41,647 nucleotides of DNA from Paracoccaceae bacterium. Its GTDB lineage: Bacteria > Pseudomonadota > Alphaproteobacteria > Rhodobacterales > Rhodobacteraceae. Both the position numbers and the translations under genes were made by a program. The stretch is from assembly GCA_002709405.1 (NCBI GenBank), contig PAQV01000053.1, positions 1 through 41,647 on the forward strand. The letters are read 5' to 3'. Position 1 is the first letter of the stretch, and each line of letters begins with the position of its first letter. Positions 99 to 22,576 of the stretch are shown here, piece after piece. The notes under the pieces are model-generated. The model saw only the letters and a program-made list of their open reading frames with translations. It did not search any database and had not been told where the DNA came from.

Positions 99-667
99 GC
101 CATGCCCTGTTCGACGACCTTGGTATAGAAGTAGGAGTCGATGCTGCGCGCCGATCTACCGGAGCCCTTCGACCGTGCCATGTCGCTCGCGAGCGACGCA
201 TCCTCCGCCCTCTCAACCGCCACCATAAGACGCGCCCACCAGTCATCGACCGCAGCCTTGACCTCGGCTACTTTCGCCTTGCCCATCGGTCTGCCCGAGA
301 ACCACGCGTTGAAGGCGCTCTGCGATGCCGACAACTGCAACACATCCCGCCACCAAGGTGCAGGCGCGATCTGCTTCATCCAGTCCTGTAGCCCATCGTC
401 AGGCGGGTCGTCGTGAGGCAGGTATTTCCTTGGATGGGAAACCTGATCACCCCACAGGTCATGCAAGGCATCGACGATACCCTCCCAGACCTCCTTGCCA
501 TTCAACGCGCGATTCCAAGAACTGTAGTCCTTGGTCTCGTCGAACAGGTCTTCGTCAAACTCCACATTGCAGAGATCGACGATGCGCTGCTTCTTGATGT
601 TGAACGCCATAAGCTGAGCGGCGTAGCCCTTGCCGAATTTCGCCGTCACTCTGTCCTTGTTCGCCAT
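68..667 (-). CDS. Hypothetical protein of element 1, C-terminus replaced by IS sequence
   Basis: A 199-residue protein of no family I recognise. It is soluble and mixed in charge, with Trp-rich patches (WWRD, DDWWARL) and a Lys/Arg-rich start (MANKDR). The start at 667 is chosen because its ATG overlaps the TGA of the upstream HTH gene (TGATG), suggesting translational coupling; a longer frame starts at 700 but runs back into that gene. The last nine residues (VNRHAKLTP) are encoded by the IS21-like terminus, so the original C-terminus has been lost or moved left of the window. It may be non-functional. No signal peptide or membrane segment is seen. Confidence 0.55.
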   Translation of the reverse strand: MANKDRVTAKFGKGYAAQLMAFNIKKQRIVDLCNVEFDEDLFDETKDYSSWNRALNGKEVWEGIVDALHDLWGDQVSHPRKYLPHDDPPDDGLQDWMKQIAPAPWWRDVLQLSASQSAFNAWFSGRPMGKAKVAEVKAAVDDWWARLMVAVERAEDASLASDMARSKGSGRSARSIDSYFYTKVVEQGMAVNRHAKLTP

Positions 668-912
668 CACCCTTGCCCCACTTCTTTTTGCTTCGCCCAC
701 GCAATGACCTCGTGCAGGTCGTAGCGCACTGTCCGCTGGCTGAAGTAGATGGCAGGCGGCGCGTCGCCGCGCTCCTTCATGTCATAGAGCGCGCGTTCCG
801 AGATTTGCAGGAAGTCGCAAACTTGGAGCGGGGTCATCATGCGGGGATGGTTCAGTCGGGTTTCGAGTTCTTCAAGGCGCGACTCGATTGCGCACAGTTG
901 GTCCTGAGACAT
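667..912 (-). CDS. Small helix-turn-helix (AlpA/excisionase-like) protein
   Basis: An 81-residue protein. Residues 1-25 are probably helical (ESRLEELETRLN). From about residue 26 there is a compact DNA-binding domain of the HTH_17/AlpA/MerR-like type: MTPLQVCDFLQISERALYDM is the helix-turn-helix and PPAIYFSQRTVRYD is the wing. Proteins of this size and fold beside a phage-type integrase are usually excisionases (recombination directionality factors) or regulators. Its gene follows the element 1 integrase on the same strand after a 163-bp gap and overlaps the next gene by TGATG. The ATG at 912 has only a weak purine-rich site upstream. Excisionase versus transcription factor cannot be separated from sequence alone. 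Confidence 0.65.
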   Translation of the reverse strand: MSQDQLCAIESRLEELETRLNHPRMMTPLQVCDFLQISERALYDMKERGDAPPAIYFSQRTVRYDLHEVIAWAKQKEVGQG

Positions 913-2400: not shown

Positions 2401-2446
2401 ACTGTTAATCAATTGGTCGTAGGTTCGATCCCTACCGCCGGAGCCA
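2401..2446 (+). repeat. tRNA-Asn 3'-end att scar (left copy, junction of elements 1 and 2)
   Basis: 46 bp identical to 15533-15578. It covers the anticodon loop (CTGTTAA, anticodon GTT for Asn at 2404-2406), the variable loop, a perfect T-arm (GTAGG-TTCGATC-CCTAC) and the 3' acceptor strand CGCCGGA-GCCA. The D-arm and 5' acceptor strand are absent, so this is not a functional tRNA gene. It is the copy of the attachment site left at the far end of element 1, and it became the left boundary of element 2. Confidence 0.9.
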
Positions 2447-2535: not shown

Positions 2536-2747
2536 CGAGCGCGATTCAACGCGGCGCGGCATCGCGCACGTTGAAGGTTGCCCAACCAGTCAATAGACCG
2601 CCAGAACACCCGTACTCCCCGAATGCGCCCGATTACCGCCCAGATCGGGCGGCACAAGGAAACGATGGCTCGCGTTTGCGGTAGATTGCTCCGACGCCCT
2701 CCTGCTAAAGTTGACCCATTGGGTAAGGTTCGAGAAGGAATTTGACG

Positions 2748-3362
2748 GTGAAGGGTTTGGGTAACGTTTTCGCCCTCATGGTGGTGGGGGTGGTTGTCGC
2801 GGTGACGGCACCGCAAATCGGGCTTTGGGTCGGGTTGGCCTTCCTCGTGGTGCCTCTAGTGGCACTGTTCAGGCTGCTTCCGCAACTCCACCTCGGGCAT
2901 CGCGGCTTCGGTATTGCGGTTGCGGCTATTGTGGCAACGACTGCTATAGGATCGCACTATGCGTCAGCGTTCGGACGGGACGACAAGTGGGTCAGTGGTT
3001 GGGGTCAAGGTGTCGCGGAAGCGATTGTGACGCACGGCCCGGGAAATCAAATCTATGTAACATGCAATGAGAGCGGTGGAGCGGGATCAACCGGCATATC
3101 GTTCATGCTCGCCGGGAAAGCACCCACCGGCGACAACATCACGTTGACCTTTGACAATGAGAATCCTGAACAAATTTGGATTTCCAATGGGGAAATCACA
3201 TCGAACTGTCGCGCTTGCATGGGCAATTATGAATATACTATCCGAAGACTTAAATCGCACAATTCCGTGCACGTCCTTTTCGAGAACGGCGACAATGCAA
3301 GGTTCACCCTCCAAGGGTCCAATAAGGCCATAAAGGACTGTGTCCCTGATTTCGCACGTTGA
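2748..3362 (+). CDS. Hypothetical membrane-anchored protein
   Basis: A protein of 204 residues with three hydrophobic segments at about residues 5-20, 24-42 and 52-68, followed by about 135 polar residues rich in beta-forming and Gly/Asn residues. The soluble part holds four Cys (VTCNESG, NCRACMG, KDC), which suits disulphides outside the cytoplasm. It ends with FTLQGSNKAIKDC, a pattern I associate loosely with small periplasmic proteins. The GTG at 2748 is chosen because AAGGA stands 7 bases upstream; an in-frame TTG at 2742 is too close to that site. It is the first of three plus-strand genes at the left end of element 2. The function is unknown. Confidence 0.6.
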   Translation: MKGLGNVFALMVVGVVVAVTAPQIGLWVGLAFLVVPLVALFRLLPQLHLGHRGFGIAVAAIVATTAIGSHYASAFGRDDKWVSGWGQGVAEAIVTHGPGNQIYVTCNESGGAGSTGISFMLAGKAPTGDNITLTFDNENPEQIWISNGEITSNCRACMGNYEYTIRRLKSHNSVHVLFENGDNARFTLQGSNKAIKDCVPDFAR

Positions 3363-3437
3363 TGCAATTCATACCATTTTGACACAGGCGCACGGATCAT
3401 CCCGTTACCCCGCACGCCTTTGGAAACGGAGCACGGC

Positions 3438-3767
3438 TTGAACAAAGTACTTCCAATAATCTTCTTGGCGTTTGACGGCCTTGCTGCACCGGCGCAGGCT
3501 CAGACGATTCCCCGCTACAATGTCGAAGGCTACTGCCAACAGGTTGCCGATATTAGTGGCGGGTCGGCGATGATCTTCAACGGCTGCATGGATATGGAGC
3601 AACAGGCCTACAACGTCCTGAAACCCGTCTGGGCGCAACTGCCCGGCAATTCGCGCAACTACTGCGACGAGGTCGCACGGGTTAGCGGCGGGTCCTACAG
3701 TATCCTTCAAGGCTGCATCGAAATGGAAACCGACGCGACAAACTCACCCCGATCGTTCGATTACTGA
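3438..3767 (+). CDS. Exported protein with two Cys-containing repeats
   Basis: 109 residues. The TTG at 3438 is preferred because GGAG stands 6-7 bases upstream and the protein then begins with a clean Sec signal peptide (residues 1 to about 21, ending APAQA). The mature protein consists of two copies of a roughly 35-residue unit: YC-x2-VA-x-I/V-SGGS-x3-I-x-GC-x-x-ME. The first copy starts at the YNVEGYC segment, the second at GNSRNYC. Each unit has two Cys that could form one disulphide. Similar YC...GGS...C repeats occur in small secreted alphaproteobacterial proteins of unknown role. It lies 75 bp after the membrane protein and 2 bp before the next gene. Confidence 0.65.
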   Translation: MNKVLPIIFLAFDGLAAPAQAQTIPRYNVEGYCQQVADISGGSAMIFNGCMDMEQQAYNVLKPVWAQLPGNSRNYCDEVARVSGGSYSILQGCIEMETDATNSPRSFDY

Positions 3768-3769
3768 TC

Positions 3770-4228
3770 ATGGCCTTGAAAATAGTCCCTCCAATCCTCG
3801 CCGCGGCATTCGGCACTCTCCTGTCCGCCCCAGCACAAGCCGATTTCATTGACACCCGTTGGTCGGTTGTCGGTTTCACCGGCGAAGCGTGGGTCATCAA
3901 CCCGCAGAGCATCATTGGCCAGTCTCAAACCTTCAATCGCGGATTTGCGGAAGGCGTGTTCTACAACTGCGACTATTCCGGTCAGTCTTCCACCTATACC
4001 CGGTATGACAACGACGCCTTTTTTGCCAATCCCGAATTCGAGCTATTCAAATCGCTCCGCAATGAGTTGACGCTGAGTAGTGAAACCTTGTTCGTTCATC
4101 GGATTACCTGCGAAGGTGACGGCAACCCAGCCAACCGGCGCGTGATGTATCCCTTCGTCACGAATGAGGCCCGGAAATCCGCGTGGTATATCTTTGAAGG
4201 TGGGGTTTTCTCGCTTTACACCCCCTAG
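3770..4228 (+). CDS. Hypothetical exported protein
   Basis: 152 residues with a signal peptide (residues 1 to about 24, ending SAPAQA before DFIDTRW). The mature part has one Cys pair (YNCDYSG and HRITCEGDG) and a beta-rich look (RWSVVGFTGEAWVI). The ATG lies 2 bp after the TGA of the previous gene and no clear Shine-Dalgarno is seen, so it is probably translated by coupling. The gene converges on the subtilase gene, whose stop lies 49 bp further on, with no obvious terminator between them. I do not recognise the family. Together with its neighbour it forms a two-gene exported-protein unit carried by element 2. Confidence 0.65.
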   Translation: MALKIVPPILAAAFGTLLSAPAQADFIDTRWSVVGFTGEAWVINPQSIIGQSQTFNRGFAEGVFYNCDYSGQSSTYTRYDNDAFFANPEFELFKSLRNELTLSSETLFVHRITCEGDGNPANRRVMYPFVTNEARKSAWYIFEGGVFSLYTP

Positions 4229-4277: not shown

Positions 4278-6815
4278 TTAGACCGAAGCCTCAATTTGTT
4301 TGGCTTCAACCATCGCACTGATTTCGGTGTGAAGGTCGACAGGCTGTCCGGGCGCGGAAATCGAAATCACCAACGCATAGCGTCCCTTGTCATTAAAACG
4401 CTTCTGCCCGGAATGGGTCTTCCACCACCCGGTGACAGGATAGACCGCAATCGCGTCGTGCAAGGCGAGGTCAATCGCTTTGCCGCGCCACAGGTCACAG
4501 TGCAGCGATCCCGCCTGAACCGCTTTTGGGCCGAGGAGCCAATAGTCAGCTTCTTTGTCGGCCGGAGGAGTTCCCTTCTCCTGATGCCCCGAAATTCGAC
4601 GAAGAAACTTCTCTTTGCCCTCTAGGCGCTTCTTCATGGCGAACCGGAGCCCGAACGAGCGGTAAGTCTCGGGGCGGGTTGCCGCGCGCCCTGAAAGGTT
4701 CGGCTCAATAAAATAGGAGACCGTGACCTTCATCATGACGATGCCGTTTTCAATCGCTTCCAGAGCCGCCTTCGGCCACGGGAGGTTATAGAAGTGCATT
4801 TCGTTGAAGACCGGCGGGCCTCCTGCATCGCTGGGGGCGAACGGCTGAATCGGAGCCTGCGCAACAAGCGTCACATCGTTTTGCGCCGAGAACACGGCCC
4901 GTTGCAGGTTCGGAACGCCATAACCAAACTCACGCAGCGCCTTTTGCTTCTCCCCTTTGCTCCCGCCTTTCCAATGCGCCCCGCGCCCAATGAAGTGCTT
5001 TCGGATCGGCTCAGGCCAGAAGGCGGAATCCACCATCAACGCTCGGTGCGTCTCGGGCCACAGGTCCGGGAGGGCCGCCTGCAAGCCGCCCACGAAGTTT
5101 CCCGCCATCCCTGCCGCCGCACTTGTCGCCCAGAAGGGCACGAGCGGCTGATGCAACACATTAGAGCCCGGAGCGAGCAGCGAGACAGATTCCGCCCAAC
5201 CGCAATCTCCCGAGGCATTGGTCAGCATGTTGCCCGCCTCGAAAAGCACCTCGGGCTTGATCGGCGTCAGGTCGTTCGCCAAGCTCTGAGTGCCCAAGCT
5301 GAAGGGACTCCGATGATTTGCCGGGACCACTGGTTTCAAGCCCGGTGGCGCGGGCGGTGGCGTCTCCTTTCGTGTGAAGCCGCCGATTGTAAGCGCGTTC
5401 CAGCTTTGTGACGGGTCTTCCAGAGGGTGCGATTGCTGGACGTGAGCCAAGGCACCACCGGGCATGTTGCCCGTCGCCACCACCATCAGCCGTTTAGGGC
5501 GTTCGGCAGCAGGAACGCCGTCAGCCTGATCGCCGGGCATCGAACCCGAAATAATCTGATCCAAAGCACCGCTCCAACTTGAGGGGCGCTCGGGTGGAAA
5601 ATCACAGGCGGAGTTTGCGAGGCAGAAGGCCCGCCGGACATTTGGCCGCTCCGCCTCGACGAGTGATACGGCGCCTTCCGTAACCACGCCGTAGCTCGGC
5701 GGCTTTGTTGCGGGGAAACCATGCGGGGGGAGGAGCTTCATGGACTCGACTGCGTGGGTCAACTCCACCTGCCGCTGATCGTTCATCAGAGGCTCAAGGT
5801 CACCATAAAGCGCCAGCCCGGCCAGCGGTGTGCCGTGGCCGCCGTGGGGATAGTGGTCTTCCGTCCCCCAAGCCCCATCATAGGCCCAAGCTCCGTGCAG
5901 CCCGGGAGCGATCAGCGGGTGCCCTCCCGCAACACCCGTGTCCAACGCGCAGACCGCATTTGCGCCCTCTGGCGGCGGGGAAACCCGCTTCACAAGATCG
6001 ACAACCCAATCCTCCGGGCCGACACCATTGCCCTGACTGTCTAGGAAAGGCTCAATCGTGCCGGTTGACCTTCGCACTTCCACAAGCGCGCCCAGCACCC
6101 GGCCAGCGAAGCCCGCTGCCGTGGCCGCTGATCCGTGAACGAAAAGAACTGTCGTGTCCGGGAAAAAGAGGCGATCCTGATGCACCTCAAGGTCCGCAAG
6201 TTGAGCCGCCGCCGCGACACCCTCGGCCATATTCGCGCCGCCGCGCACCCAGAGTTCCCACCAAACGGCATCGGGAGAATCGAACTCCGCCGGGCCAACA
6301 AATAGGGACCGTGCCGCTGCGGCTTGGATCGTCTCAATCCGCTCAAATCGGTCAAGGTCTTGCCGTGCTTGGTTTCCGGGGTCTTTTCCATACCCCTGAA
6401 GCCTGCCCCGCAGAAAAGCACGGGCATCATCTGGCACGAAAATGAGAGCGCTTTCCGTTCGGTCGTCTCGCCGCTCTGATCGAAGCAAGACCACATCTTC
6501 CTGCGGGAACTCAAGATTCTTGGGCAGTTTCACCGCGCCAGAACGGGCAGATTGCGGCGGCATGGTGCCCACCTCAACAATCGTGCCGGGCTTCAGCCAC
6601 TCGACGGGCAAACGGTTGTCGTGCCCCGCCCCAGGTATCTCGCCCAGCGCGGCAGCCAATTGGTCGAGAAGGTTCTGGGCGTGTGCCGCGTAATCTTCCC
6701 GGAGCGGCTTCTTGTCCATCTTCTGCTTCGGGTAGGAATAACCAACCTCGTCCCGGAATACGTCGAACGGGATGTGCACATGCTTGCGCGCGTCGAAATC
6801 ACTTTGATCCGCCAT
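4278..6815 (-). CDS. Subtilisin-like (S8) serine protease paired with an AAA+ ATPase
   Basis: 845 residues, far longer than a simple subtilase. Residues 1 to about 285 are an uncharacterised N-terminal region with no signal peptide, so the protein is probably cytoplasmic. The S8 domain (about 286-640) has the full triad: Asp292 (CALDTGV), His327 (HGGHGTPLAG) and Ser565 (FWATSAAAGMAG), plus oxyanion-hole Asn450 (VVATGNMPG). A C-terminal region of about 200 residues (660-845) is likely a beta-rich accessory domain. The gene follows the AAA+ ATPase gene on the same strand after 53 bp; AGGG stands 5 bases before the ATG. The lack of a secretion signal and the fixed ATPase partner suggest an intracellular, regulated protease, perhaps in phage defence. 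That role is inference. Confidence 0.85.
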   Translation of the reverse strand: MADQSDFDARKHVHIPFDVFRDEVGYSYPKQKMDKKPLREDYAAHAQNLLDQLAAALGEIPGAGHDNRLPVEWLKPGTIVEVGTMPPQSARSGAVKLPKNLEFPQEDVVLLRSERRDDRTESALIFVPDDARAFLRGRLQGYGKDPGNQARQDLDRFERIETIQAAAARSLFVGPAEFDSPDAVWWELWVRGGANMAEGVAAAAQLADLEVHQDRLFFPDTTVLFVHGSAATAAGFAGRVLGALVEVRRSTGTIEPFLDSQGNGVGPEDWVVDLVKRVSPPPEGANAVCALDTGVAGGHPLIAPGLHGAWAYDGAWGTEDHYPHGGHGTPLAGLALYGDLEPLMNDQRQVELTHAVESMKLLPPHGFPATKPPSYGVVTEGAVSLVEAERPNVRRAFCLANSACDFPPERPSSWSGALDQIISGSMPGDQADGVPAAERPKRLMVVATGNMPGGALAHVQQSHPLEDPSQSWNALTIGGFTRKETPPPAPPGLKPVVPANHRSPFSLGTQSLANDLTPIKPEVLFEAGNMLTNASGDCGWAESVSLLAPGSNVLHQPLVPFWATSAAAGMAGNFVGGLQAALPDLWPETHRALMVDSAFWPEPIRKHFIGRGAHWKGGSKGEKQKALREFGYGVPNLQRAVFSAQNDVTLVAQAPIQPFAPSDAGGPPVFNEMHFYNLPWPKAALEAIENGIVMMKVTVSYFIEPNLSGRAATRPETYRSFGLRFAMKKRLEGKEKFLRRISGHQEKGTPPADKEADYWLLGPKAVQAGSLHCDLWRGKAIDLALHDAIAVYPVTGWWKTHSGQKRFNDKGRYALVISISAPGQPVDLHTEISAMVEAKQIEASV

Positions 6816-6868
6816 TAGACCCTGCTTCCAAATTCATTGGGCTCACCATTCACGCTCTGCGTGCACGG

Positions 6869-7879
6869 CTACAGGTTCGCGCCTTTACGAAACTTACCCT
6901 TGAAGGTTTGGCGATCATGCAGGGCCGAGCGCAGGGCGTCAGCCGAAATTTTTGTCACGCCGTCAATAATTGCGTCTTTCACAACCGAGTCCGTGGCGCG
7001 CACAAGCTCACCGGGGCTCAACCCTACCAATGTCGGTTCAAATGAGGACCAAGACCGCGCATTCAACTTGAACTTGCCGAGGCGCTTTTCAATAATCTCT
7101 CGCGCAGCAACGGAGTCCGGCAGCGAATATTCCACCACCTCGTCAAACCGGCGAGCCAAGGCTTCGTCGAGAATTTCAACATGGTTTGTCGCGGCCAGCA
7201 CAACGCTGTCCGTCGAATTGGGCTCTTCCATGAATGCGAGAACCGAATTCAGGACCCGGCGGATTTCGCCAACATCGTTCGGATCACCCCGGCGAGCGCC
7301 GATAGCATCGAACTCGTCGAGAAGATACACACCGCGCATCTGGGCAATCTGATCGAACAACACCCGGAGCTTGCCTGCGGTCTCCCCGAAGAATCGGCTG
7401 AAAAGGGATTCAAGCCGGACGGTGAACAAGGGCAACCGAAGCTCACCGGCCAGCGCCGAGGCTGTCATGGTCTTGCCCGTTCCGGGAGGTCCAACGAGGA
7501 GCAAATGGGTTGTGGGCTTCTGACCGTATTGGCGCAGCGTGGCACGTTCTTCTTGCTGCCGGACCACGCGGGCTAGTCGGTTGCGCACATCGTCGGTCAG
7601 CACCATGTTGCCCAAGGTAATCTTCGGGTAAGTGCTTTCGACAAGCTCCTGAAGTTCGGCCCGTGGGCGAGCCATCGGGATCGGCGCCTGTCCCCCTGCA
7701 GGAGCGCCAAGGCGCCGCTGATCTCGCGCCTTCTGAACAGCACGCTTCAGCTTCTCCGCATCATCGGCCCGCCCTTCGCGCGCCTGTTGCGCGGCGATCT
7801 GCAAAGCGACTGAAAGGAACTGATCTTCGTCGCCCTCGATATGCGAATTGAGGAGGGCAAGAATCTGTCGTGTAGTCAT
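6869..7879 (-). CDS. AAA+ ATPase partner of the subtilase
   Basis: 336 residues. Residues 1 to about 55 form a helical N-domain (QILALLNSHIEGDEDQFLS, then an Ala/Lys-rich helix), followed by a Pro/Gly linker. The AAA+ core has Walker A GPPGTGKT (130-137), Walker B LLDEFD (186-191), sensor 1 Asn232 (AATN) and an Arg finger in ARRFD (242-246). It resembles the classical FtsH/Cdc48-type AAA clade with a single ring domain and no protease or membrane segment of its own. The start at 7879 is favoured by GGAGG 9 bases upstream; longer frames lack such a site. It is transcribed just ahead of the subtilase. It could unfold substrates for the protease or hold it inactive until triggered. Confidence 0.88.
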   Translation of the reverse strand: MTTRQILALLNSHIEGDEDQFLSVALQIAAQQAREGRADDAEKLKRAVQKARDQRRLGAPAGGQAPIPMARPRAELQELVESTYPKITLGNMVLTDDVRNRLARVVRQQEERATLRQYGQKPTTHLLLVGPPGTGKTMTASALAGELRLPLFTVRLESLFSRFFGETAGKLRVLFDQIAQMRGVYLLDEFDAIGARRGDPNDVGEIRRVLNSVLAFMEEPNSTDSVVLAATNHVEILDEALARRFDEVVEYSLPDSVAAREIIEKRLGKFKLNARSWSSFEPTLVGLSPGELVRATDSVVKDAIIDGVTKISADALRSALHDRQTFKGKFRKGANL

Positions 7880-8091: not shown

Positions 8092-8352
8092 TCAGTCCCA
8101 ACCGGGCAAGCGTGTCACCTCGTCCCAATCGTTCACCTCGTCGCCCCAATCGCTGCCGGGCAAAGCGTCGATTGCAAAGTCGAGCGCGCACATCCAGAGG
8201 ACTCGCCCGTATACCCGGATCGGCCCGGGCATGAGGTCATCGGCAATCATGCGGTCGAGCGTGTTCACCGATACACCGACATAGGCGGCGGCCTCGGCGC
8301 GGTGGAGCATCCGGCGTGTCAGGAGCGGGAGAGCTTTGGTGCATTCGGGCAT
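8092..8352 (-). CDS. Small helix-turn-helix DNA-binding protein
   Basis: 86 residues from the ATG at 8352, which has GGAGGAG about 10 bases upstream; a longer frame to 8397 has no better site. The middle is a MerR/AlpA-type HTH (LHRAEAAAYVGVSVNTLDRM) with a short wing (PGPIRVYGRVLWMCALD). The tail is acidic (DWGDEVNDWDEV). It sits between the repeat-rich non-coding block and the ATPase-subtilase genes, on the same strand as the latter, so it may control the cargo promoter, the origin, or excision. It is the second HTH protein of this fold in element 2. Confidence 0.7.
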   Translation of the reverse strand: MPECTKALPLLTRRMLHRAEAAAYVGVSVNTLDRMIADDLMPGPIRVYGRVLWMCALDFAIDALPGSDWGDEVNDWDEVTRLPGWD

Positions 8353-8648
8353 TCGGCCTGTTCTCCTCCCCGGGGTGACGATTAAGAGCCAGACCATAGC
8401 ACACGCCCGGCGTTCGGATCACCAAGGCGGCGGGGTGCCCGAGGTCGCTCGGGTCCTTCCGAGGGGCTGGGGATCGTCAGGGGGTTCGCGGAGTCCCGGT
8501 TCGCGAAGTTTTTTCGGAAGTCATGAATTTTAGCCAAGATTTTTTAGAATCGAGGGGAACCGAGTTTCTAATTCAAAAAATTTTTGCGCAGCGGGAAAGA
8601 CCGGGGCTCCGCGGTACCCGCATTGCCCTTTCCCGGATAGTACCTTCA

Positions 8649-9078
8649 CGGGAACGGCGGTAAAGCCGGGAAAGTCGGCAAGCCCTTGAGCGGCACCCGG
8701 ACAGCCTGCCACGGCAGAGCGACGGCCCAACGCCTCGGGATTGGTCCGAGTGATCCGGGTCAGCCCGGATCGGGACGCTTCACCCGGATCGCACAAACCA
8801 CTACAGTTCAATGCCTTACACAACCCTGATCCAAGTGATCCAAGTGATCCAAGTAAAGAGGCAAATCGTCTGATGAATCCGTTTGGGAAGAACACCCCCG
8901 GAGAACAGGGGGCGTAGAGAAGCATATCTAAAAGAATATCCGAAAAAGGGCGGATCCCTTGGAACACTTGGATCACTGAAACAAAAACAATGGGTTACGG
9001 ATATCCTCACCCGGATCACTGCCCGGATCACCCGGAAGTAATGGCGGGAAGTTCGGGAACGGCAGTAAAGCCGGGAAC
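8649..9078 (+). repeat. Pair of 25-bp direct repeats bracketing the iterons
   Basis: CGGGAACGGC-R-GTAAAGCCGGGAA, followed by looser similarity (GGGAAAGYCGGCAA), occurs at 8649-8673 and 9054-9078; the first 24 bases differ at one position. The two copies stand about 405 bp apart on either side of the GATCCAAGT units. They may be further replication-protein sites or the trace of a duplication. Confidence 0.55.
8828..8854 (+). repeat. Tandem 9-bp iteron-like repeats (GATCCAAGT x3)
   Basis: Three exact, adjacent copies at 8828-8836, 8837-8845 and 8846-8854, with an inverted copy ACTTGGATC at 8966-8974. There is no spacer between units, so this is not a CRISPR array. The 9-bp length keeps a reading frame open by chance across the block. 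Confidence 0.75.
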
Positions 9079-9153
9079 GCTGGGAAAGCCGGCAAACCCC
9101 GCTCTGGAAAATCCACCACGGCAAACGGGGAACACCGCAGCCCGGGTTGCGCG

Positions 9154-11595
9154 TCATATCAGGGCATCGGCTTCCGGGTCATCGTCCACCCCGGCGTCAG
9201 CATCACCCCACTGCACCGGAGCCCCAAGCCACCGCTCGAACTTCGCACGGCACTCAGCCAGCGAAGGGAAGACAAACACCCGCGGCCCGGGCGTCCCATC
9301 AACGCGGGGCCGCTTTTCGGCCAGTTCATCACCCAAGAGCCGCTTCAACTCTTTGGTGAAGACCGACTCGACAACGGGATCACCGCCAAACCGCCTTTCA
9401 CGCAATGCAGCCTTATAGCTCGCCCTCACCGCCTCCTTTTTCACAGTGATCGGGTCAGACCAATCCCCGAAATCCTCGAACTCGGCCGCATCCCCTTTTT
9501 CCAACACCTCGAACCACCAGAGTTCCACGCCCCGAAGCGAGGCGATTTTCTGATCCCGCAGGGCTTCGGTTTGCGGAACGTCGCGCACGTCGAACCCGGC
9601 AAGGTCAACTGAGAGGAGATAGGCAAGAAACGCGCCGGGCCCGCCCCCTTCGATCTCCTTATAAAGCGGGCCGAACCATCCGGCCTCGCGCTGATGAACG
9701 TCCGAAACGTCAAAGACCGCATAGCGGCGCTCATCCTCCGAGGCCGGAACTGCCCATGCATCGTTGGTCGTCATCAACACGCGCAGGAAGGAGTTGACTT
9801 CGATCCGATCAACCCCCTTCCGTTCGATGGGCTGGGTGCGCGCGGTGATGAGCGCCTGAAGGGTGCCCTTCTTACTCACGTCGCCTGACCAAAACGCCTC
9901 CTCGACGTGGACGAGGAGCGCAGTGGCGAAGGGGGCGTTGAACCGCCCGGTCAGGTCATCGGCCCGGATGATGTGGGCAACGTGCTTGCGGCCAATGATC
10001 CTCCCCATGATCTCGGCCAGCGTGTCTTTGCCCACTCCCTTGCCGCCACGCAGCACGAGGGCAACACCGGGCTTCCGCCCGGGGTTCTGCACGAGGTCCG
10101 CTAGCCACCCGATGACATACCGGAAATGCGCTTCGTTCCCTGCCGCGATCACATCCCGAACGTGCGCGACAATCCTCTCGCACGAGCCTTTCGGGTCAGG
10201 CTGCACGGCAAGGCCGGAGTAGAGATTGAGCGCACTCTTGGGGGCGCTGCCGCTTGGATCAAAGACAATGCCGTGATAGGTGCGCCGCCCGGGGGAGGCA
10301 ATCCAGTGCTTGGAAACCGGAACCATCGCCCCCTTGGCCCCCGAGGGCACCAGATCATTCGCGTAAAGGGCGTGAAGCCCTTCCACCGGCCCAAGTTCGA
10401 TCTGGTCCCCCGTGAAATCCGCAATCCACGTCTTGGCACCGTGGCGCACCACCGCGTGACGCTCGTTCATTCGCGCCGTCACGCGGTCAACCTTGGGCTT
10501 CCCGACCTTGGACGCCGGAACGGCCGTCGTCGCCCCTACAAGGTCTTCTATAGCTGCGAGTTCATTCGCCGGAATGCTGGCTTCAATATCGTCGAAGTCC
10601 GCCAGAGGATCACACCACGGCAGCGGCCGAGCCATGCCCGAATTGAGGCCGTTGCTGATGTGGCGCTCAAGATCGCGGGAAGAATAGTCGGCCAGATAGC
10701 CCACCTCATCTGCCGCTGCCGCCAACGCCTCACGCGCCTGTTCTTCAGAAAGGACACTGCACGCAACATATCCTCCGAGGTGAACGGCTTGCCGATGAAT
10801 TTCTCCGGTGCGGGAAAGGCCCTTCTCTGCGGCCTCGACAATCCGGGCCTTGGCCCAATCAAGCATCTTCAAGGCATGGTCGACGGCCTCTGGAATCTCG
10901 GATTGGTCCACGGCAGCCTGCGGCGTTTCGGAAAGCAAGGCGCTGGGCGGGCGGCTCGGCCCGATAGCCTGCGCGTCCAGATCGTCGACTTGGTCAATGC
11001 ACCTGGGGCCATCAACAAGGAAGGTCCGCACCGGGGGCTGGCCCTCCACTGATCCGAAATAGAACCCCTGCGAGAGCTTGAAAGACTCGTCCGCCAGCGC
11101 GCCGCGCAGCACCCCGTTCATGCGGGCCGCCATCTGAAGCCGCTCATCAGGCCGCACCGGGCGGCTGTAGGGCAACACGACACGGAAGCGATTCCCCTTG
11201 CCCGGCTTGCCGTGGCTCGGCGTCGTGAAGATCAGCGCGAGCACCCCGGCTTTGGTGAAGGCATCCCTAGCAGCCTCAGGCGTGATCTCGCCCGCGTCAT
11301 AGTCCCCTTCCACCCCGGTCACTTCGATCACGTTCGCATCGCAGCGGTAGGAGTGCCCCGAAGGCGAAAGCGCGGTCGTATCACCGAAACGCGCCAGCTT
11401 CAGAAACGGCAGGTATTCCTTGGCCTCGGCCGAGGTGCCGGGGATCAACTTCGCAAGCTCCCGGAGCGTGGCGGTCTTGTCGACTTTCCGCCCGCCCGTT
11501 TCGTCGGGGAAGATCGTGTAGGCAAAGGGCACATCGGCCAGCCGGGGCCGCAACTCTTGATCGGGCAGCGCCCGCGCGGTATTCTTCATCATCAT
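9154..11595 (-). CDS. Primase-polymerase/superfamily 3-type helicase replication protein
   Basis: 813 residues. The N-terminal half looks like an archaeo-eukaryotic-type primase (PrimPol): EGDYD with Asp98 and Asp100, then TTPSHG with His128, then NRFRVVLPYSRPV around 135-146. Those are the three motif positions of that fold. Residues about 480-640 are a DUF5906/VirE-like SF3 helicase ATPase: Walker A GGKGVGKDT (517-525), Walker B LLVHVEEAF (560-568), sensor-like MTTND (608-612) and DERRYAV (621-627). Such fusions replicate satellites and plasmids independently of host primase. Three Met codons open the gene, and GGAAG stands 6 bases before the first. It ends next to the repeat block taken as the origin. 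Confidence 0.85.
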   Translation of the reverse strand: MMMKNTARALPDQELRPRLADVPFAYTIFPDETGGRKVDKTATLRELAKLIPGTSAEAKEYLPFLKLARFGDTTALSPSGHSYRCDANVIEVTGVEGDYDAGEITPEAARDAFTKAGVLALIFTTPSHGKPGKGNRFRVVLPYSRPVRPDERLQMAARMNGVLRGALADESFKLSQGFYFGSVEGQPPVRTFLVDGPRCIDQVDDLDAQAIGPSRPPSALLSETPQAAVDQSEIPEAVDHALKMLDWAKARIVEAAEKGLSRTGEIHRQAVHLGGYVACSVLSEEQAREALAAAADEVGYLADYSSRDLERHISNGLNSGMARPLPWCDPLADFDDIEASIPANELAAIEDLVGATTAVPASKVGKPKVDRVTARMNERHAVVRHGAKTWIADFTGDQIELGPVEGLHALYANDLVPSGAKGAMVPVSKHWIASPGRRTYHGIVFDPSGSAPKSALNLYSGLAVQPDPKGSCERIVAHVRDVIAAGNEAHFRYVIGWLADLVQNPGRKPGVALVLRGGKGVGKDTLAEIMGRIIGRKHVAHIIRADDLTGRFNAPFATALLVHVEEAFWSGDVSKKGTLQALITARTQPIERKGVDRIEVNSFLRVLMTTNDAWAVPASEDERRYAVFDVSDVHQREAGWFGPLYKEIEGGGPGAFLAYLLSVDLAGFDVRDVPQTEALRDQKIASLRGVELWWFEVLEKGDAAEFEDFGDWSDPITVKKEAVRASYKAALRERRFGGDPVVESVFTKELKRLLGDELAEKRPRVDGTPGPRVFVFPSLAECRAKFERWLGAPVQWGDADAGVDDDPEADALI

Positions 11596-12670: not shown

Positions 12671-12999
12671 AAGGCGCCCCCGGGACACAGGAGCGAGGTC
12701 GGCAACGCGACTGCGTGAAGGCCGAGCGCCCGATAGGCTGCATCCCGTTCGGTTGGGTCGATAAGGCCCGGGTCAATCCAGAAGCCGAGCGTTTCGCCAC
12801 CGTCGCGGCCCGGGATCAACCCGAACTGAGCGGCCAGCGCGACACGGCGCCTGGTGGTTTTCGCAATCCACTGGCGGGCTTCTGCCTCAAGGGACGAACC
12901 GGCCTCTGCCTGCGAGGGGGTCGCCCCCGCGCGTAGGTAATTAGTCCGCCGCTTCCGGCGCCAGCGGTCCCAGTAGGGAGTAAGGTTCGGGCCGGTCAT
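12667..12999 (-). CDS. Small hypothetical protein
   Basis: 110 residues from the ATG at 12999, which overlaps the TGA of the HTH gene (TGATG). It begins MTGPNLTPYWDRWRRKRRTN, a basic stretch that may bind nucleic acid. The rest (ARQWIAKTTRRRVALAAQFG, then a DPGLIDPTERDAAYRALG segment) is predicted to be helical. The family is unknown. The stop overlaps the start of the next gene. Its place in a fully overlapping operon is the main reason to accept it as real. Confidence 0.55.
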   Translation of the reverse strand: MTGPNLTPYWDRWRRKRRTNYLRAGATPSQAEAGSSLEAEARQWIAKTTRRRVALAAQFGLIPGRDGGETLGFWIDPGLIDPTERDAAYRALGLHAVALPTSLLCPGGAL

Positions 13000-13214
13000 C
13001 AGGCAGCCCCCGCGCCGAAGCGAACGGTGCGCCCCTCGGCCCATTCAAGGAGGCTCGGGGTGTGATACCGGATCGCGCCACGACCGAAGACCACGAAGGG
13101 CGGCCCCTTGCGGTCGTGGAAGTGGCGATACTTTTCGAGCGACGAGCGCGAAATCCCAAGCAGGTTCGCGGCGGTCTGAGTGTCGATATAAAGCGGCAGG
13201 TTCTCGGGTTGCAT
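12999..13214 (-). CDS. Helix-turn-helix regulator (AlpA/HTH_17 type)
   Basis: 71 residues: LYIDTQTAANLLGISRSSLE is the HTH, followed by the typical GPPFVVFGRGAIRYHTPSLLEWAEGR wing and helix of the AlpA/excisionase-like family. It heads a four-gene overlapping run that ends before the primase-helicase. It is preceded by an unusual hairpin that includes its ribosome-binding site (13215-13250) and by a 15-bp direct repeat (13283-13316). Both are candidates for autoregulation. It may be the master regulator of replication and excision of element 2. Confidence 0.75.
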   Translation of the reverse strand: MQPENLPLYIDTQTAANLLGISRSSLEKYRHFHDRKGPPFVVFGRGAIRYHTPSLLEWAEGRTVRFGAGAA

Positions 13215-13316: not shown

Positions 13317-13996
13317 TAGTCGCTCCTCCTGCGCGCCTTGATTTTTGCGCACCACCCGTAGAGTGTGCTTTGCGGCGGCGCGTCGTCTTCCTCCTCAAAA
13401 GTGGCGAGGATTTCCGCAGGCTCCCAGCCCTCGGCCAGAAGCTTTTCTACGGTGGGGTGCCACTTCGAGCGCTGGCGATCTTTATCACGCTTGGCCTGCC
13501 CCCCGCGCGAGGCAACTTCTTTTCGGGTCAACGGGACGCGCGGCGCATCGGCCGAGGCGTCCAGTGCCTCGGGCGGCAGGTATTTCCGGCACTCAGGATC
13601 GTCCCGGGCGATCTTCAGCCACGGAATCGGCACCCCGGCCGCAATCGTCTTCGCTATTGCTTCCTTGGGAGGCATGGTGGTCAGGCGCAGCCCGCCGATA
13701 TAGCCGTGTTGATCTTCAAGCCCGGCGTCCAGTGCCCACAGGTCTTCGGGTTGCCGCGCATCGAAGGGGACACCGTAGAAAACATCCGCGCGGGGGAGGA
13801 AAGACATGTCGGCGCCCCCGGTGTTGCGGCCAATCTCGGGATCGTAACCGCATAGCACCGCCATAGCCTGTGAAGGCTTCCACGAAGGCACGGCCAGCCA
13901 ATCCCGCAGCCGCCGCATCCTCGCCCGTTCCTTTAGCGGCAGGTGCGCAAGATCGTCGTGGTCGTCCACCGCGCCGAGCAGGTGTTCTTCGGTCAT
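13316..13996 (-). CDS. Hypothetical protein co-transcribed with integrase 2
   Basis: 226 residues with no family recognised. The N-terminus is acidic (GAVDDHDDLAHLPLKERARM). The middle has WKPSQAMAVLCGYDPE, a segment seen in small phage/island proteins. The C-terminal 60 residues are basic and end in an HTH-like stretch (QSTLYGWCAKIKARRR). The ATG overlaps the TGA of the integrase gene by 4 bases (ATGA), so it is translationally coupled to the integrase, which suggests a role in mobility or its control. A 101-bp promoter-like gap follows. Confidence 0.6.
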   Translation of the reverse strand: MTEEHLLGAVDDHDDLAHLPLKERARMRRLRDWLAVPSWKPSQAMAVLCGYDPEIGRNTGGADMSFLPRADVFYGVPFDARQPEDLWALDAGLEDQHGYIGGLRLTTMPPKEAIAKTIAAGVPIPWLKIARDDPECRKYLPPEALDASADAPRVPLTRKEVASRGGQAKRDKDRQRSKWHPTVEKLLAEGWEPAEILATFEEEDDAPPQSTLYGWCAKIKARRRSD

Positions 13997-15357
13997 GCCC
14001 GTTTCCCCCGTTTTCCGCCATCAAGCGCCACCACATTCGCGCCCAGCCCGAGCGCGGCGGCTACCTCGTTTCCAATCAAATCAGCCGCCCGGCGCTGCGG
14101 ATCGGCGGCAAGGTGGGCGTAACGTTTCGTCGTGGCCGCCTGCGAATGCCCGAGCAAGGCGCCGATCTGGTGCAAGCTGAGCCCGGCCCCGGCGCCCACG
14201 GCCGCGTTGGAGTGGCGCAGATCGTGCAGCCTCGTCCCCTCGATTCCGGCTTCGCGGCAAACCGCTCGCCAGAGCCGGTTCACGTCCGCGCGGGGCTTCT
14301 CGTTCGCGGTCCCGGCCGAGGTGCTTGCAATGACAAAGCGCCCGATGCGCGGCAACCCGTCCAACAAGGCCAGCGCGGCGCCGCCCAAAACGATCACTTT
14401 CGCTCCCGTCTTCGAGTCTGGCAACCGGAGCATCCCCCGCCCGAAATCGACGTGCGACCATTCCAGATCAAGGATTTCGCGCACCCGGGCGCCGGTCAGC
14501 AAAAGGAGCCGGATCGCAGCCACCGAATGCACATCGAAATTGGCGCGGCGGTTCTCGGGGGCAGGAAGGTGTTTCGCGCCCGGGGCTGCCTCGTTCACTT
14601 GCCACGGCAGCCCCTCGGTCTCCGCAAGGGTCAGGGCAGCGCCGAGGGCCTGCATTTCTTCCGAGGAAAGGAAGCGCTCGCGCCCCTTCTCCTTGAACGC
14701 CTCTACCCCGGTAGCCGGATTCTGCGAACCCTCGGGGAGAAGGCCGAGGCCAATCGCCCAACTGAACATGGCCTTGAGAACGGCCAGCGCCCGATTGGCG
14801 ATGATCGGGCCGCCCCTCGTCTTCTGGGCAGCCGTCCGCTTCGCACCTGCCTTCTTAGCGCCCGTCGCTTTACGGGCAATCGCCCCGTGCAACTTGGCAA
14901 CGTCGCTCCGTGTCAACGTAACGGCCTTCCGGGAGCCAATGGCGGGCAAAATGTGGGTATCGAGAACCGCGCGATACAGCTTCGCCGTGGCTTCCTTGCG
15001 CTTCGGTTCGACGTGCCGGGAAAGCCATTCGGCCGCGATCTCGGAAATGGTGTCAGCCGCCCGGGCCTCGGCTCGCTCGGCCGCAGGATCAGCGCCGAGA
15101 CGCACCTTGGCGAGAAGGTCTTTCGCCATGTCCCGGGCCTGTTCCGGCGTGACGGTCTCAAGGTTGCCCAGAACCACCCGTTTCTTGGCTGTGCCGCGCC
15201 CTCCGGCACCCGGGCGATATTCAAGAATCCACGAGCGCGAGCCCGAGGGGCGCACGAGGAGCCCGAAGCCTTTCAAGGCATCATCGTAATAGGTGACGGG
15301 CTTCTTGGGCGTCTCGATTGCCGCGATGGTGCGGCGGGCGATTTTGATGACAGGCAT
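13993..15357 (-). CDS. Tyrosine recombinase/integrase of element 2
   Basis: 454 residues. The N-terminal 95 residues match the DUF4102-like arm-binding region of P4-type integrases (YYDDALKGFGLLVRPSGSR). A core-binding domain follows, with an unusual Lys/Ala-rich insert at about 162-182. The catalytic domain has Arg291 (LTGARVREILDLEW), His378-x-x-Arg381 (LHDLRHS), His404 (LLGHSQ) and nucleophile Tyr413 (KRYAH). A second insert of about 25 residues lies at 250-275. The ATG at 15357 has GGAGG 6 bases upstream; a longer GTG-started frame would run through the arm-type repeats. The gene lies beside the 15533-15578 scar and reads away from it. Confidence 0.93.
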   Translation of the reverse strand: MPVIKIARRTIAAIETPKKPVTYYDDALKGFGLLVRPSGSRSWILEYRPGAGGRGTAKKRVVLGNLETVTPEQARDMAKDLLAKVRLGADPAAERAEARAADTISEIAAEWLSRHVEPKRKEATAKLYRAVLDTHILPAIGSRKAVTLTRSDVAKLHGAIARKATGAKKAGAKRTAAQKTRGGPIIANRALAVLKAMFSWAIGLGLLPEGSQNPATGVEAFKEKGRERFLSSEEMQALGAALTLAETEGLPWQVNEAAPGAKHLPAPENRRANFDVHSVAAIRLLLLTGARVREILDLEWSHVDFGRGMLRLPDSKTGAKVIVLGGAALALLDGLPRIGRFVIASTSAGTANEKPRADVNRLWRAVCREAGIEGTRLHDLRHSNAAVGAGAGLSLHQIGALLGHSQAATTKRYAHLAADPQRRAADLIGNEVAAALGLGANVVALDGGKRGKRA

Positions 15358-15373
15358 TCCGGCCTCCGGGCTT

Positions 15374-15416
15374 CCGGTGGCGACTTGAGGACGGAATCGC
15401 CACCGAGTCGCCACCG
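15374..15416. repeat. Candidate arm-type integrase sites, right end of element 2
   Basis: Three units of the motif seen at 2513-2535: an inverted AGTCGCCACCGG at 15374-15385, then direct GAATCGCCACCG (15394-15405) and AGTCGCCACCG (15406-15416). They fill the space just upstream of the integrase gene and lie about 117 bp from the att core. The exact 15-mer shared with the left end argues for one DNA-binding protein acting at both ends. Confidence 0.5.
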
Positions 15417-15532: not shown

Positions 15533-15578
15533 ACTGTTAATCAATTGGTCGTAGGTTCGATCCCTACCGCCGGAGCCA
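15533..15578 (+). repeat. tRNA-Asn 3'-end att scar (right copy, element/chromosome junction)
   Basis: Identical over 46 bp to 2401-2446, from the anticodon loop to the encoded GCCA. The sequence before it (CCGGATTTCTATA) cannot form the D-arm or the anticodon 5' strand, so this is a scar and not a gene. It is followed at once by the terminator of the original tRNA, which marks the return to chromosomal DNA. Confidence 0.9.
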
Positions 15579-20945: not shown

Positions 20946-22436
20946 TCACAGAAGGAAGGCGTCTTCGGCCACTCCAAGCGTGTCCAGCAGGAAGAACTTC
21001 ATTTCCGCCGTAGCATCACCATCCGCATCGACCAGCACCAGGGTGTTGCCGTTCTTCTCCCGCGTGACCACGCTTGCGATCCCGGCTTGCAATGCTCCGC
21101 CGATGGTCAGCGCCAACGCGGTCTCTGAAATCGCCGACAGGTCGATCAGGTCGATGCCCAGCTCGAAGTCCATGACCCGGTCCAGCCGGTTGCCCACCAG
21201 GCTTTCGTCGACCGAGCGGAACCGGAACGTGTCGGCCCCCGCCTGCCCGTGAAGACGGTCAAACCCGTCCCCGCCCCACAGCATGTCGTCCCCGTCTCCG
21301 CCGATCAGGATGTCGTCGCCGTTCTGCCCGCGTAGCCGGTCGTCGCCCCCGCCGCCATTCAGACTGTCGTTGTCATTGGCCCCCGACAGCACGTCGTCGC
21401 CCAGACCGCCCAGCAGAAAATCGTCTCCACGCCCGCCGATCAGGTCGTTGTTGCCATCATTGCCCAGGATCTCGTCATTGCCATCCCCGCCGATGGCGTT
21501 TTCGATCAAGGACCGCAGGTCGCCCTCGAACAGCAGCGCATTGGCCAGGTTGCCCCGCGCCATGCGCGTCGGGTCATCGGAATAACGGTCCAGATCGGCC
21601 AGCTGCGCCTGGGAAAAGGTCGACCATTCCCCGGGCCGCAGGTCGATCAGCAGATCGGTGGCATAATTGCCAAGATCATAGGTGTCCTCGCCATGACCAT
21701 CCCAGATCGTGCGGAAAATCCGGTTCCCCGCAGGCGTGCCCTGCCCGATCCCGTTGATCGACATCTCGCCGGTGTCGGGATCAAATGTATAAACGGTGTT
21801 GCCCGACCAGACCTCGCCCGTGGCCGAGAAATTGGCCCCGTACATGAATTGAATGGCCGCGATATCCAGCTGCTGATAGCTTTGCGCCCAATCCACCAAC
21901 CCGGAATCGTAGGAAAACGTATCGGTGTCGCCGACGTAATCGGTATAGGTGACCACCGTGAATTCCTGGCTATCCATGCCCGAGGCCACGAATTCGGGAT
22001 ATTCATGGCCGTGTTCCAGCCCCATGGCATGGCCGATTTCGTGGGTGAAATAGAGGTAGGCCTCGTTTCCCACTACCGGGTCCGCGGTACCCGAGCCCAC
22101 AAAGATGTCTCCGCCCTGGCTGGCCGCGGTCGGCAGGTAGGCATAGGCCCCGCCAAGCCCTCGTTCCTGGGCAAACCGCAGATCGCCTTCGGTGGCCTGC
22201 GTTTCGGTGACCTCGACAAAATTCAGGCCGGTGAAACTGGCGATATCGGCCAGCGCCCGGCGCACAGCGTCCTTCTGGCTGTCGCTCAATTCCTCGACCC
22301 GGAAATCGGGCTGGTAGGAATAATAACTGCCATCCGTCGGAAAGCTGTAGGTCAGGGTCGGGACGTCCCATTTCAGGTCCCACAGCCAGGGGTCGTAAAC
22401 CGCGCCGGATTGGCCTGTCTCTGTCACAGCGGTCAT
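20946..22436 (-). CDS. Serralysin-type RTX zinc metalloprotease
   Basis: 496 residues. The catalytic domain (about 30-205) has HEIGHAMGLEH (zinc ligands His132, His136, His142, with Glu133 as base) and a Met-turn IQFMYG (Met198), as in peptidase family M10B. Residues about 316-400 are glycine-aspartate RTX nonapeptides (GGDGND, GGRGDD, GGLGDD and so on) that bind calcium. The C-terminal domain (ADTFRFRSVDES onward) is the serralysin C-terminal type used for type I secretion. There is no N-terminal signal peptide, as usual for this route; no ABC exporter gene is nearby. The ATG at 22436 has AAGGA 8 bases upstream. The gene converges on the SMC-like ATPase gene, 135 bp away. Confidence 0.92.
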   Translation of the reverse strand: MTAVTETGQSGAVYDPWLWDLKWDVPTLTYSFPTDGSYYSYQPDFRVEELSDSQKDAVRRALADIASFTGLNFVEVTETQATEGDLRFAQERGLGGAYAYLPTAASQGGDIFVGSGTADPVVGNEAYLYFTHEIGHAMGLEHGHEYPEFVASGMDSQEFTVVTYTDYVGDTDTFSYDSGLVDWAQSYQQLDIAAIQFMYGANFSATGEVWSGNTVYTFDPDTGEMSINGIGQGTPAGNRIFRTIWDGHGEDTYDLGNYATDLLIDLRPGEWSTFSQAQLADLDRYSDDPTRMARGNLANALLFEGDLRSLIENAIGGDGNDEILGNDGNNDLIGGRGDDFLLGGLGDDVLSGANDNDSLNGGGGDDRLRGQNGDDILIGGDGDDMLWGGDGFDRLHGQAGADTFRFRSVDESLVGNRLDRVMDFELGIDLIDLSAISETALALTIGGALQAGIASVVTREKNGNTLVLVDADGDATAEMKFFLLDTLGVAEDAFLL

Positions 22437-22576
22437 GGGCAAGATCCTTGGAACGAATGAAACAGCCGAAGCCGAATGGCTTCCCCAGGTTGAGTATCCG
22501 CCGATTGGTCGCATCGCGCAACAGAGCGTCATTCACCCCGCCCGATGCTGAGCCCCCAGGACATTAAACGAGACAC

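What the first reader, a model, noticed from the sequence alone, without database searches (positions are those of the whole stretch)
4278..7879. AAA+ ATPase and giant subtilase pair as island cargo: candidate two-part ATP-dependent protease/defence module
Seen: adjacent same-strand genes, an AAA+ ATPase with intact Walker A, Walker B, sensor 1 and Arg finger, and an 845-residue S8 protease with an intact Asp292-His327-Ser565 triad and no signal peptide, carried on an integrated element. Known: AAA+ rings feed proteases such as FtsH, ClpP and Lon, and islands commonly carry defence cargo. Inferred: here the ring and a subtilisin-type protease are separate partners, with the ATPase either unfolding substrates for the protease or restraining it until infection. 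The ~285-residue N-terminal region of the protease has no family I recognise and is the obvious docking or sensing part. I recall such pairs being annotated together in other genomes but could not check that.
Basis: partly seen in the sequence, partly recalled or inferred. Interest (0 to 1): 0.8.

Follow-up and report, generated by a model that had tools for sequence, protein, structure and literature searches.

The report
Island-borne protease toxin with ATPase antidote
A small mobile DNA element carries a two-gene module, an intracellular protease and the ATPase that most likely keeps it in check, of a kind already known to hold mobile DNA in place and to defend bacteria against phages.

Summary
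In detail: at 4278-7879 (minus strand) an AAA+ ATPase (336 aa) is followed after 53 bp by an 845-aa S8 protease, both with intact active sites, inside a 13.1-kb element bounded by a 46-bp tRNA-Asn repeat. The pair is not unknown: it matches PADLOC's IetA (1.2e-69) and IetS (2.4e-26). Relatives are published as toxin-antitoxin pairs (pTiC58, SGI1: protease toxic, ATPase protective) and as phage defence. Pairing is near obligate: 38 of 41 IetS loci in viral contigs have IetA directly upstream (the other three are cut or truncated near a contig end), 9 of 9 in a class sample. Partner distances correlate at r = 0.965. The window lies in a branch of 51 of 64 pairs whose proteases lost the glycine (50 of 51) and proline (51 of 51) flanking the catalytic serine, while D, H, N and S stay. 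NCBIfam's anti-phage equivalog cut-offs are not reached. Best reading: a toxin-antitoxin module, IetA restraining IetS, serving element maintenance and probably phage defence. New member of a known kind.

The parts
6869..7879 (-). ietA: AAA+ ATPase, 336 aa; N-terminal three-helix bundle (about 3-56), classic-clade AAA module, Walker A K136, Walker B D188/E189, pore-loop F163, R243/R244
4278..6815 (-). ietS: S8 (subtilisin-type) protease, 845 aa; D292, H327, N450, S565; N-terminal region 1-285 and last 200 residues without Pfam family
6816..6868 (-). 53-bp gap, ATPase gene first, same strand: likely one transcription unit (inferred)
2401..2446 (+). left 46-bp direct repeat (3' end of tRNA-Asn), attachment site, probably between this element and a neighbouring one
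15533..15578 (+). right 46-bp direct repeat (3' end of tRNA-Asn), followed by a terminator like the one that follows tRNA-Asn in a congener
13993..15414 (-). tyrosine integrase of the element
12999..13214 (-). HTH/excisionase-like protein of the element
9154..11595 (-). phage-type primase (DUF5906) of the element backbone
8092..8397 (-). small HTH/excisionase-like protein upstream of ietA; no evidence that it belongs to the pair

Best explanation
The pair is an IetAS/SgiAT-type toxin-antitoxin module carried by an integrated element. IetS is a cytoplasmic subtilisin-type protease that harms its own cell when unrestrained; IetA, probably a hexameric classic-clade AAA+ ATPase made first from the same transcript, holds it inactive. 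If the element is lost, or if a phage disturbs IetA or its cue, IetS is released and stops the cell, which keeps the element in the population and limits phage spread. Shown here: gene order, intact active-site residues, near-obligate pairing, co-divergence, membership by profile, carriage on a tRNA-Asn element. Taken from published relatives: protease as toxin, ATPase as antidote, a maintenance role, a phage-defence label. Inferred: that this copy acts so, that it is hexameric, that restraint is by direct ATP-driven remodelling of IetS, and what triggers release.
For: PADLOC IetA 1.2e-69 and IetS 2.4e-26; 39 of 39 proteases of the window's alignment match IetS models. IetA directly upstream on the same strand in 38 of 41 viral-contig IetS loci; in two of the other 3 the protease runs off the contig start, the third is a truncated protease about 250-300 bases from it; 9 of 9, window included, in a 385-genome class sample; 4 of 4 genome-contig loci, one pair decayed; 8 of 9 in 295 family genomes, one of these split between the two ends of a contig, the ninth being a 152-aa fragment. 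Distance correlation 0.965 (shuffles at most 0.169). Active-site D/H/N/S kept in 64 of 64. Published: SgiT cuts transformation 100-1000-fold in E. coli and SgiA cancels this; the paper's title says that the system promotes SGI1 maintenance (PMC5006074, passages and listing); in the minimised mycoplasma Syn2.0 deletion of the ATPase gene alone is lethal, deletion of the protease gene or of both is not (PMC8562856 citing earlier work, passages). Identity to homologues on 214,233-bp Agrobacterium plasmids (the size of pTiC58, recalled): IetA 46.1%, IetS 35.6%.
Against: No function of this copy is shown. NCBIfam's anti-phage equivalog cut-offs are not met: IetA 195 of 510 bits, IetS 13.6 of 900. 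IetA keeps an aromatic pore-loop residue in 39 of 39, as expected of a threading unfoldase, so feeding of substrates is not excluded. SgiAT from its own promoter gave no post-segregational killing in E. coli (PMC5006074), so simple addiction is not general. ATPases without a protease exist: L106 (299 aa) and the C-terminal third of one in G102:C658, with no protease match within the 10 kb and 3.5 kb held; an antidote alone is allowed by the model, but these weaken strict pairing.
Confidence: 0.72

Rival explanations
1. Two-part ATP-dependent protease: the IetA ring unfolds phage or host proteins and threads them into IetS, as FtsH, ClpXP or PAN-proteasome do.
For: Classic-clade AAA module; the best folds include FtsH and proteasomal ATPases; pore-loop aromatic F or Y in 39 of 39.
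Against: Subtilases form no known closed degradation chamber (recalled). In tested relatives the protease is toxic without the ATPase and the ATPase cancels the toxicity (PMC5006074, PMC8562856; passages). No complex could be modelled with these tools.
Confidence: 0.13
2. Unfoldase-switched zymogen: IetS is latent because an N-terminal prodomain-like piece (about 184-249) covers its active site; IetA pulls on or holds this piece and so sets the protease on or off.
For: The predicted order beta-alpha-beta-beta-alpha-beta at 184-249, just before the catalytic domain, is the order of the I9 subtilisin propeptide (recalled); the top fold matches are subtilases solved with their propeptides.
Against: Inhibitor_I9 is matched by 0 of 18 members at E up to 10; pro-subtilisin E scores like mature subtilisins in the fold list, which gives no alignment ranges, so the prodomain match is not shown; IetS relatives are toxic alone, so latency is not complete.
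Confidence: 0.12
3. Decayed or unused copy kept by chance on the element.
For: Decayed copies exist: L005 has lost the Walker B glutamate and its protease is truncated, G039 holds only a 152-aa fragment.
Against: Both genes here are full length with every catalytic residue, and relatives at 88% and 77% identity are full length with the same residues.
Confidence: 0.03

Closest known systems
IetA/IetS of Agrobacterium plasmid pTiC58 (Yamamoto et al. 2009; known here only from citations in PMC8562856, PMC5006074, PMC8765062)
   Same: AAA-ATPase antitoxin and S8 serine-protease toxin, on a mobile replicon; homologues on plasmids of pTiC58's size (recalled) are 46% (IetA) and 36% (IetS) identical to the window's.
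   Different: Carried by a large plasmid, not by a small tRNA-integrated element; function there tested, here not.
SgiA/SgiT of Salmonella Genomic Island 1 (PMC5006074)
   Same: Island-borne pair, ATPase gene first, protease second, 20 bp apart; the protease is toxic, the ATPase cancels it; said to promote island maintenance.
   Different: Direct sequence comparison with the window was not made; the paper gives 50% (SgiA) and 36% (SgiT) identity to pTiC58 IetA/IetS.
IetAS phage-defence system of E. coli (Gao et al. 2020, recalled; NCBIfam IteA/IteS, PADLOC IetA/IetS)
   Same: Same two-gene order and domain types; PADLOC models match both proteins.
   Different: NCBIfam equivalog cut-offs far from met. 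Window-branch proteases lack the glycine and proline of GTSx[AS]xP, which 13 and 12 of the 13 other-branch proteases on the tree keep. Where the E. coli pair itself falls was not tested.
T133/A132 of Mycoplasma mycoides subsp. capri (PMC8562856)
   Same: Subtilisin-like protease toxin (757 aa) and AAA-ATPase antitoxin (353 aa), functionally confirmed in that paper (passages).
   Different: Chromosomal, very distant host; sequence not compared here.
FtsH, proteasome-activating nucleotidase, p97 (AAA unfoldases)
   Same: Same AAA fold and motifs.
   Different: Those are fused to or dock on chambered proteases or act alone (recalled); IetA pairs with a subtilase.

Membership tests
IetAS (PADLOC sense) | AAA+ ATPase matching IetA models | tested here: met
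   E 1.2e-69, 233.5 bits; PADLOC's own cut-offs are not shown by the tool
IetAS (PADLOC sense) | S8 protease matching IetS models | tested here: met
   E 2.4e-26, 90 bits, partial coverage 464-839; 39 of 39 aligned proteases match
IetAS (PADLOC sense) | Adjacent same-strand genes, ATPase first | tested here: met
   window; 38 of 41 viral loci; 9 of 9 class loci, window included
Anti-phage IteA/IteS equivalogs (NCBIfam NF042959, NF042956) | score above the curated cut-off | tested here: not met
   195.4 of 510 bits; 13.6 of 900 bits
Toxin-antitoxin pair of pTiC58/SGI1 type | protease toxic alone, ATPase cancels toxicity | not testable with these tools
   only shown for relatives in print (PMC5006074, PMC8562856)
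Toxin-antitoxin pair of pTiC58/SGI1 type | closer in sequence to those pairs than to other AAA-S8 pairs | tested here: inconclusive
   tblastn identity 46.1% and 35.6% to homologues on 214,233-bp Agrobacterium plasmids; the 13 other-branch pairs have 24-30% and 16-20% over a whole alignment, and the other-branch ATPases in the family sample 29-36% over the matched part. That the length is pTiC58's is recalled, and neither reference pair was placed on the tree
S8 subtilase | Asp-His-Ser triad plus oxyanion Asn | tested here: met
   Pfam 3.1e-41; D, H, N, S kept in 64 of 64
S8 subtilase | G and P of the GTSx[AS]xP signature round the serine | tested here: not met
   window ATSAAAG; G absent in 50 of 51 and P absent in 51 of 51 branch members
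Classic-clade AAA unfoldase | Walker A/B, sensor 1, arginine fingers, aromatic pore loop | tested here: met
   the first three and R243/R244 invariant, pore-loop F (27) or Y (12), in 39 of 39
Inhibitor_I9 propeptide | Pfam match in the N-terminal region | tested here: not met
   0 of 18 members at E up to 10; predicted strand-helix order is compatible
tRNA-integrated mobile element | direct repeats of a tRNA 3' end, integrase, uninterrupted site in a relative | tested here: met
   the flank beyond about 86 bp is not shared with the congener's tRNA site

The most novel reading that the evidence does not exclude
The window's branch is a functionally shifted IetAS lineage: its proteases have lost both signature residues flanking the catalytic serine (G to A/D/E/M/S, P to A/G) while keeping the catalytic four, so the protease may be nearly silent until IetA remodels it. 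IetA would then be antidote and activator in one, switching a latent protease by threading its N-terminal piece.
Probability: 0.1. Interest if true: 0.6.

Novelty: new member of a known kind. Interest (0 to 1): 0.3.

Why it matters
It turns an apparently new module into a concrete, testable case of IetAS, whose mechanism two papers seen here in passages (2023, 2025) call undescribed or unknown. It also shows that the database models of IetAS cover the window's branch poorly (best match 1.6e-43 among 39 proteases), yet the window protease has relatives on 456 plasmid records, 315 of them predicted conjugative. A branch-wide change next to the catalytic serine is a clear handle for asking how an AAA+ antidote controls a subtilase.

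Tried and rejected
Considered and rejected: secreted protease (no leader visible by eye, partner a cytoplasmic type of ATPase); chance neighbours (adjacency and co-divergence); a third conserved gene (upstream neighbours differ between L004, L005, L124, L125 and the window; by eye, not counted); an I9 propeptide by sequence (0 of 18; PF05922 found in 0 of 115 class genomes, so no local profile could be built); PDB relatives of the pair by sequence (14 subtilisin-type rows matching one short stretch for IetS; for IetA p97/AFG2/FtsH kin, 60 of 274 rows shown; no row shown is named IetA or IetS). A search of the N-terminal piece A5 against PDB gave 8 weak rows, best E 0.015. Element backbone: the primase has relatives in only 2 of 197 other family genomes at E 1e-60, so cargo exchange was not studied. 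Literature: Gao 2020 and Yamamoto 2009 are not held; searches for a mechanism paper listed surveys, the SGI1 paper and the mycoplasma papers.

Rows dropped or against: the 64-pair set was put together by hand plus viral loci with protease at least 660 aa and ATPase at least 310 aa, less one identical protease; truncated, split or cut loci (such as L005, L044, L053-L056, L103, L109, L127, L133) are not in it, nor is the intact L043, whose protease reads GTSCSNA, that is, glycine kept and proline lost in another branch. A5 uses 18 of the 24 slices printed. The strict motif [ADEMS][TS]SxAx[AG] fits 49 of 51 branch members. The tree is a quick one without bootstraps, and treekit warns that long branches meet, so the order of the outer branches is unsure. 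Nearest relatives agree between the two proteins in only 41 of 64 pairs.
Full report
OBSERVATION. The minus strand of the window carries a 336-aa AAA+ ATPase (6869-7879) and, 53 bp downstream, an 845-aa S8 protease (4278-6815). Pfam gives AAA at 5.4e-30 and Peptidase_S8 at 3.1e-41 over protein residues 287-633. In alignments of 39 ATPases and 39 proteases these positions never vary. The N-terminal 285 residues of the protease and its last 200 have no Pfam match at E up to 10.

ELEMENT. A perfect 46-bp direct repeat lies at 2401-2446 and 15533-15578. It occurs a third time in the genome, on contig C97, as the 3' end of an intact tRNA-Asn. No complete tRNA is found at either window copy. In a congener (G675) tRNA-Asn is intact and directly followed by a terminator like the one after the right repeat (95% over the first 86 bases). 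Beyond that the flank differs: the genes right of the element lie on another contig in G675 and far from the matching repeat in G239. The stretch between the repeats, about 13.1 kb, holds an integrase next to the right repeat, HTH/excisionase-like proteins and a phage-type primase; the pair lies towards the far end. A second integrase (1076-2269) stands next to the left repeat in the same orientation, so two elements probably sit in tandem on one tRNA; the ends of C97 and C53 show no overlap, so this is inference.

IDENTITY. PADLOC names both proteins: IetA 1.2e-69, IetS 2.4e-26. NCBIfam's equivalog models for the anti-phage pair (spelled IteA/IteS) are found but far below cut-off: 195.4 of 510 and 13.6 of 900 bits. 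All 39 members of the window's protease alignment match IetS models, the best at 1.6e-43. Of the four other-branch proteases scanned two reach 963 and 996 bits, the others 370 and 139; the window reaches 90. The window is therefore IetAS in the wide sense, in a branch that the models cover poorly.

PAIRING TEST. In viral contigs 41 loci encode a relative of the protease; 38 have the ATPase gene directly upstream on the same strand, between 110 bp of overlap and a 309-bp gap (the 309 bp belongs to a shortened protease). In two of the other three the protease runs off the contig start; the third is a truncated protease whose match begins about 250 bases from the contig end. In a class-wide sample of 385 genomes 9 of 9 protease loci, the window's included, have the ATPase adjacent. 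The 4 loci of genome contigs all have it. In 295 family genomes 9 have a protease match: 7 with the ATPase adjacent, one with the pair at opposite ends of the same contig, one a 152-aa fragment without ATPase in the 12 kb held. In the family sample the 13 more distant ATPases (29-36% identity) are followed by an S8 protease in 12 cases, one of them (L044) only a weak profile match without the serine motif, and the 13th ends 47 bases before its contig. G102 holds two ATPase pieces: one runs off its contig, the other (C658, the C-terminal third) has no protease match in the 3.5 kb held. Over 64 pairs the distances of the two proteins correlate at r = 0.965, shuffled pairings reaching at most 0.169; the nearest relative is the same for both proteins in 41 of 64.

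A BRANCH WITH A CHANGED SERINE MOTIF. In a quick tree of the ATPases the window lies in a set of 51 of 64 rows (SH-aLRT 99). In the partner proteases of this set the glycine two before the catalytic serine is replaced in 50 of 51 and the proline four after it in 51 of 51, by A or G; of the 13 proteases outside, 13 keep the glycine and 12 the proline. One more outside protease, not on the tree (L043, GTSCSNA), has lost the proline too, so the glycine is the better mark. D, H, N and S are kept in 64 of 64. The outer branches are long and their order is unsure. That these two places are residues 219 and 225 of subtilisin, and that changes at 225 shift a subtilisin from hydrolysis towards peptide ligation, is recalled.

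STRUCTURE. AlphaFold models from the 39-row alignments: ATPase mean pLDDT 79, a three-helix bundle at 3-56 before the AAA module; protease mean pLDDT 84. Best PDB folds are proteasomal and FtsH ATPases for the former and subtilases, led by pro-forms of Thermococcus Tk-SP, for the latter. Just before the catalytic domain, 184-249 has the order strand-helix-strand-strand-helix-strand, as in subtilisin propeptides (recalled), but no I9 match by sequence; this stays open. IetA has F or Y at the pore-loop place in 39 of 39. No complex could be modelled.

WHAT RELATIVES DO. Yamamoto et al. [quoted passage not shown] title and short remarks seen in papers citing it). Homologues on 214,233-bp Agrobacterium plasmids, the size of pTiC58 by recall, are 46.1% (ATPase) and 35.6% (protease) identical to the window's by tblastn; the 13 pairs outside the window's branch have 24-30% and 16-20% over a whole alignment, a stricter measure. 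SGI1's SgiT lowers transformation 100- to 1000-fold in E. coli and SgiA prevents this; from its own promoter the pair did not cause post-segregational killing there (PMC5006074, passages). In the minimised mycoplasma Syn2.0 deletion of the ATPase gene alone is lethal, that of the protease gene or of both is not, and toxicity and neutralisation were confirmed for M. mycoides (PMC8562856, passages). The phage-defence role rests on Gao et al. 2020 (not held; recalled) and on later papers that list ietAS as such: one lists it among systems activated by components of the phage replication machinery (PMC10732053, passage), a review lists it with systems tied to functional phage proteins (PMC10286901, passage), and two call its mechanism undescribed or unknown (PMC9958689; PMC11878078; passages).

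MECHANISM. Most likely IetS is a self-harming cytoplasmic protease and IetA the antidote that holds it, with release on loss of the element or on infection. Shown here: anatomy, pairing, co-divergence, carriage. From relatives: toxin and antidote roles. Inferred: all else, including that this copy does so. In some searches no full-length protease was seen without an ATPase, contig-edge cases apart, while ATPases without a protease do occur (L106, G102:C658); this asymmetry is what an antidote would give, on few cases.

VERDICT. Observation confirmed; interpretation partly supported; a new member of a known kind, in a branch with a change at the catalytic serine that I found no remark on (searches, none of them aimed at the motif).

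Noticed in passing
1076-2269 and 667-912 (-); G000:C97:15858-24238 (L061): A second integrase and an AlpA-like HTH stand near the left tRNA-Asn repeat; on C97 the intact tRNA-Asn is followed by a cytosine methyltransferase gene, a 444-aa protein with a weak MzaB match (1.3e-4) and a protein that looks like a phage terminase by eye. Probably the other end of a second element or prophage in tandem.
   Followed up: partly
8649-8681 and 9045-9104: Repeats of a 33-nt unit, the second group with 9-nt spacing, between the small HTH gene and the primase gene: possibly a replication origin of the element.
   Followed up: no
L005 (Pelagimonas MAG): A decaying pair: the ATPase has lost the Walker B glutamate (LLDVFD) and the protease frame is truncated.
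   Followed up: partly
plasmid collection: Relatives of the window protease occur on 456 plasmid records, 213 of them from Klebsiella, in the rows shown mostly at about 32% identity and mostly annotated as plain S8 family peptidase.
   Followed up: partly
2742-4228 (+): Three small plus-strand ORFs at the element's cargo end without PHROG family at E 0.001; the two that were also scanned against Pfam, PADLOC and NCBIfam had no match there either.
   Followed up: no
NCBIfam NF042956/NF042959: NCBIfam spells the names IteS/IteA, while PADLOC and the papers seen use IetS/IetA.
   Followed up: no
20946-22532 (-): A 528-aa ORF that looks, by eye, like a serralysin-type metalloprotease with glycine-rich repeats, outside the element.
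   Followed up: no
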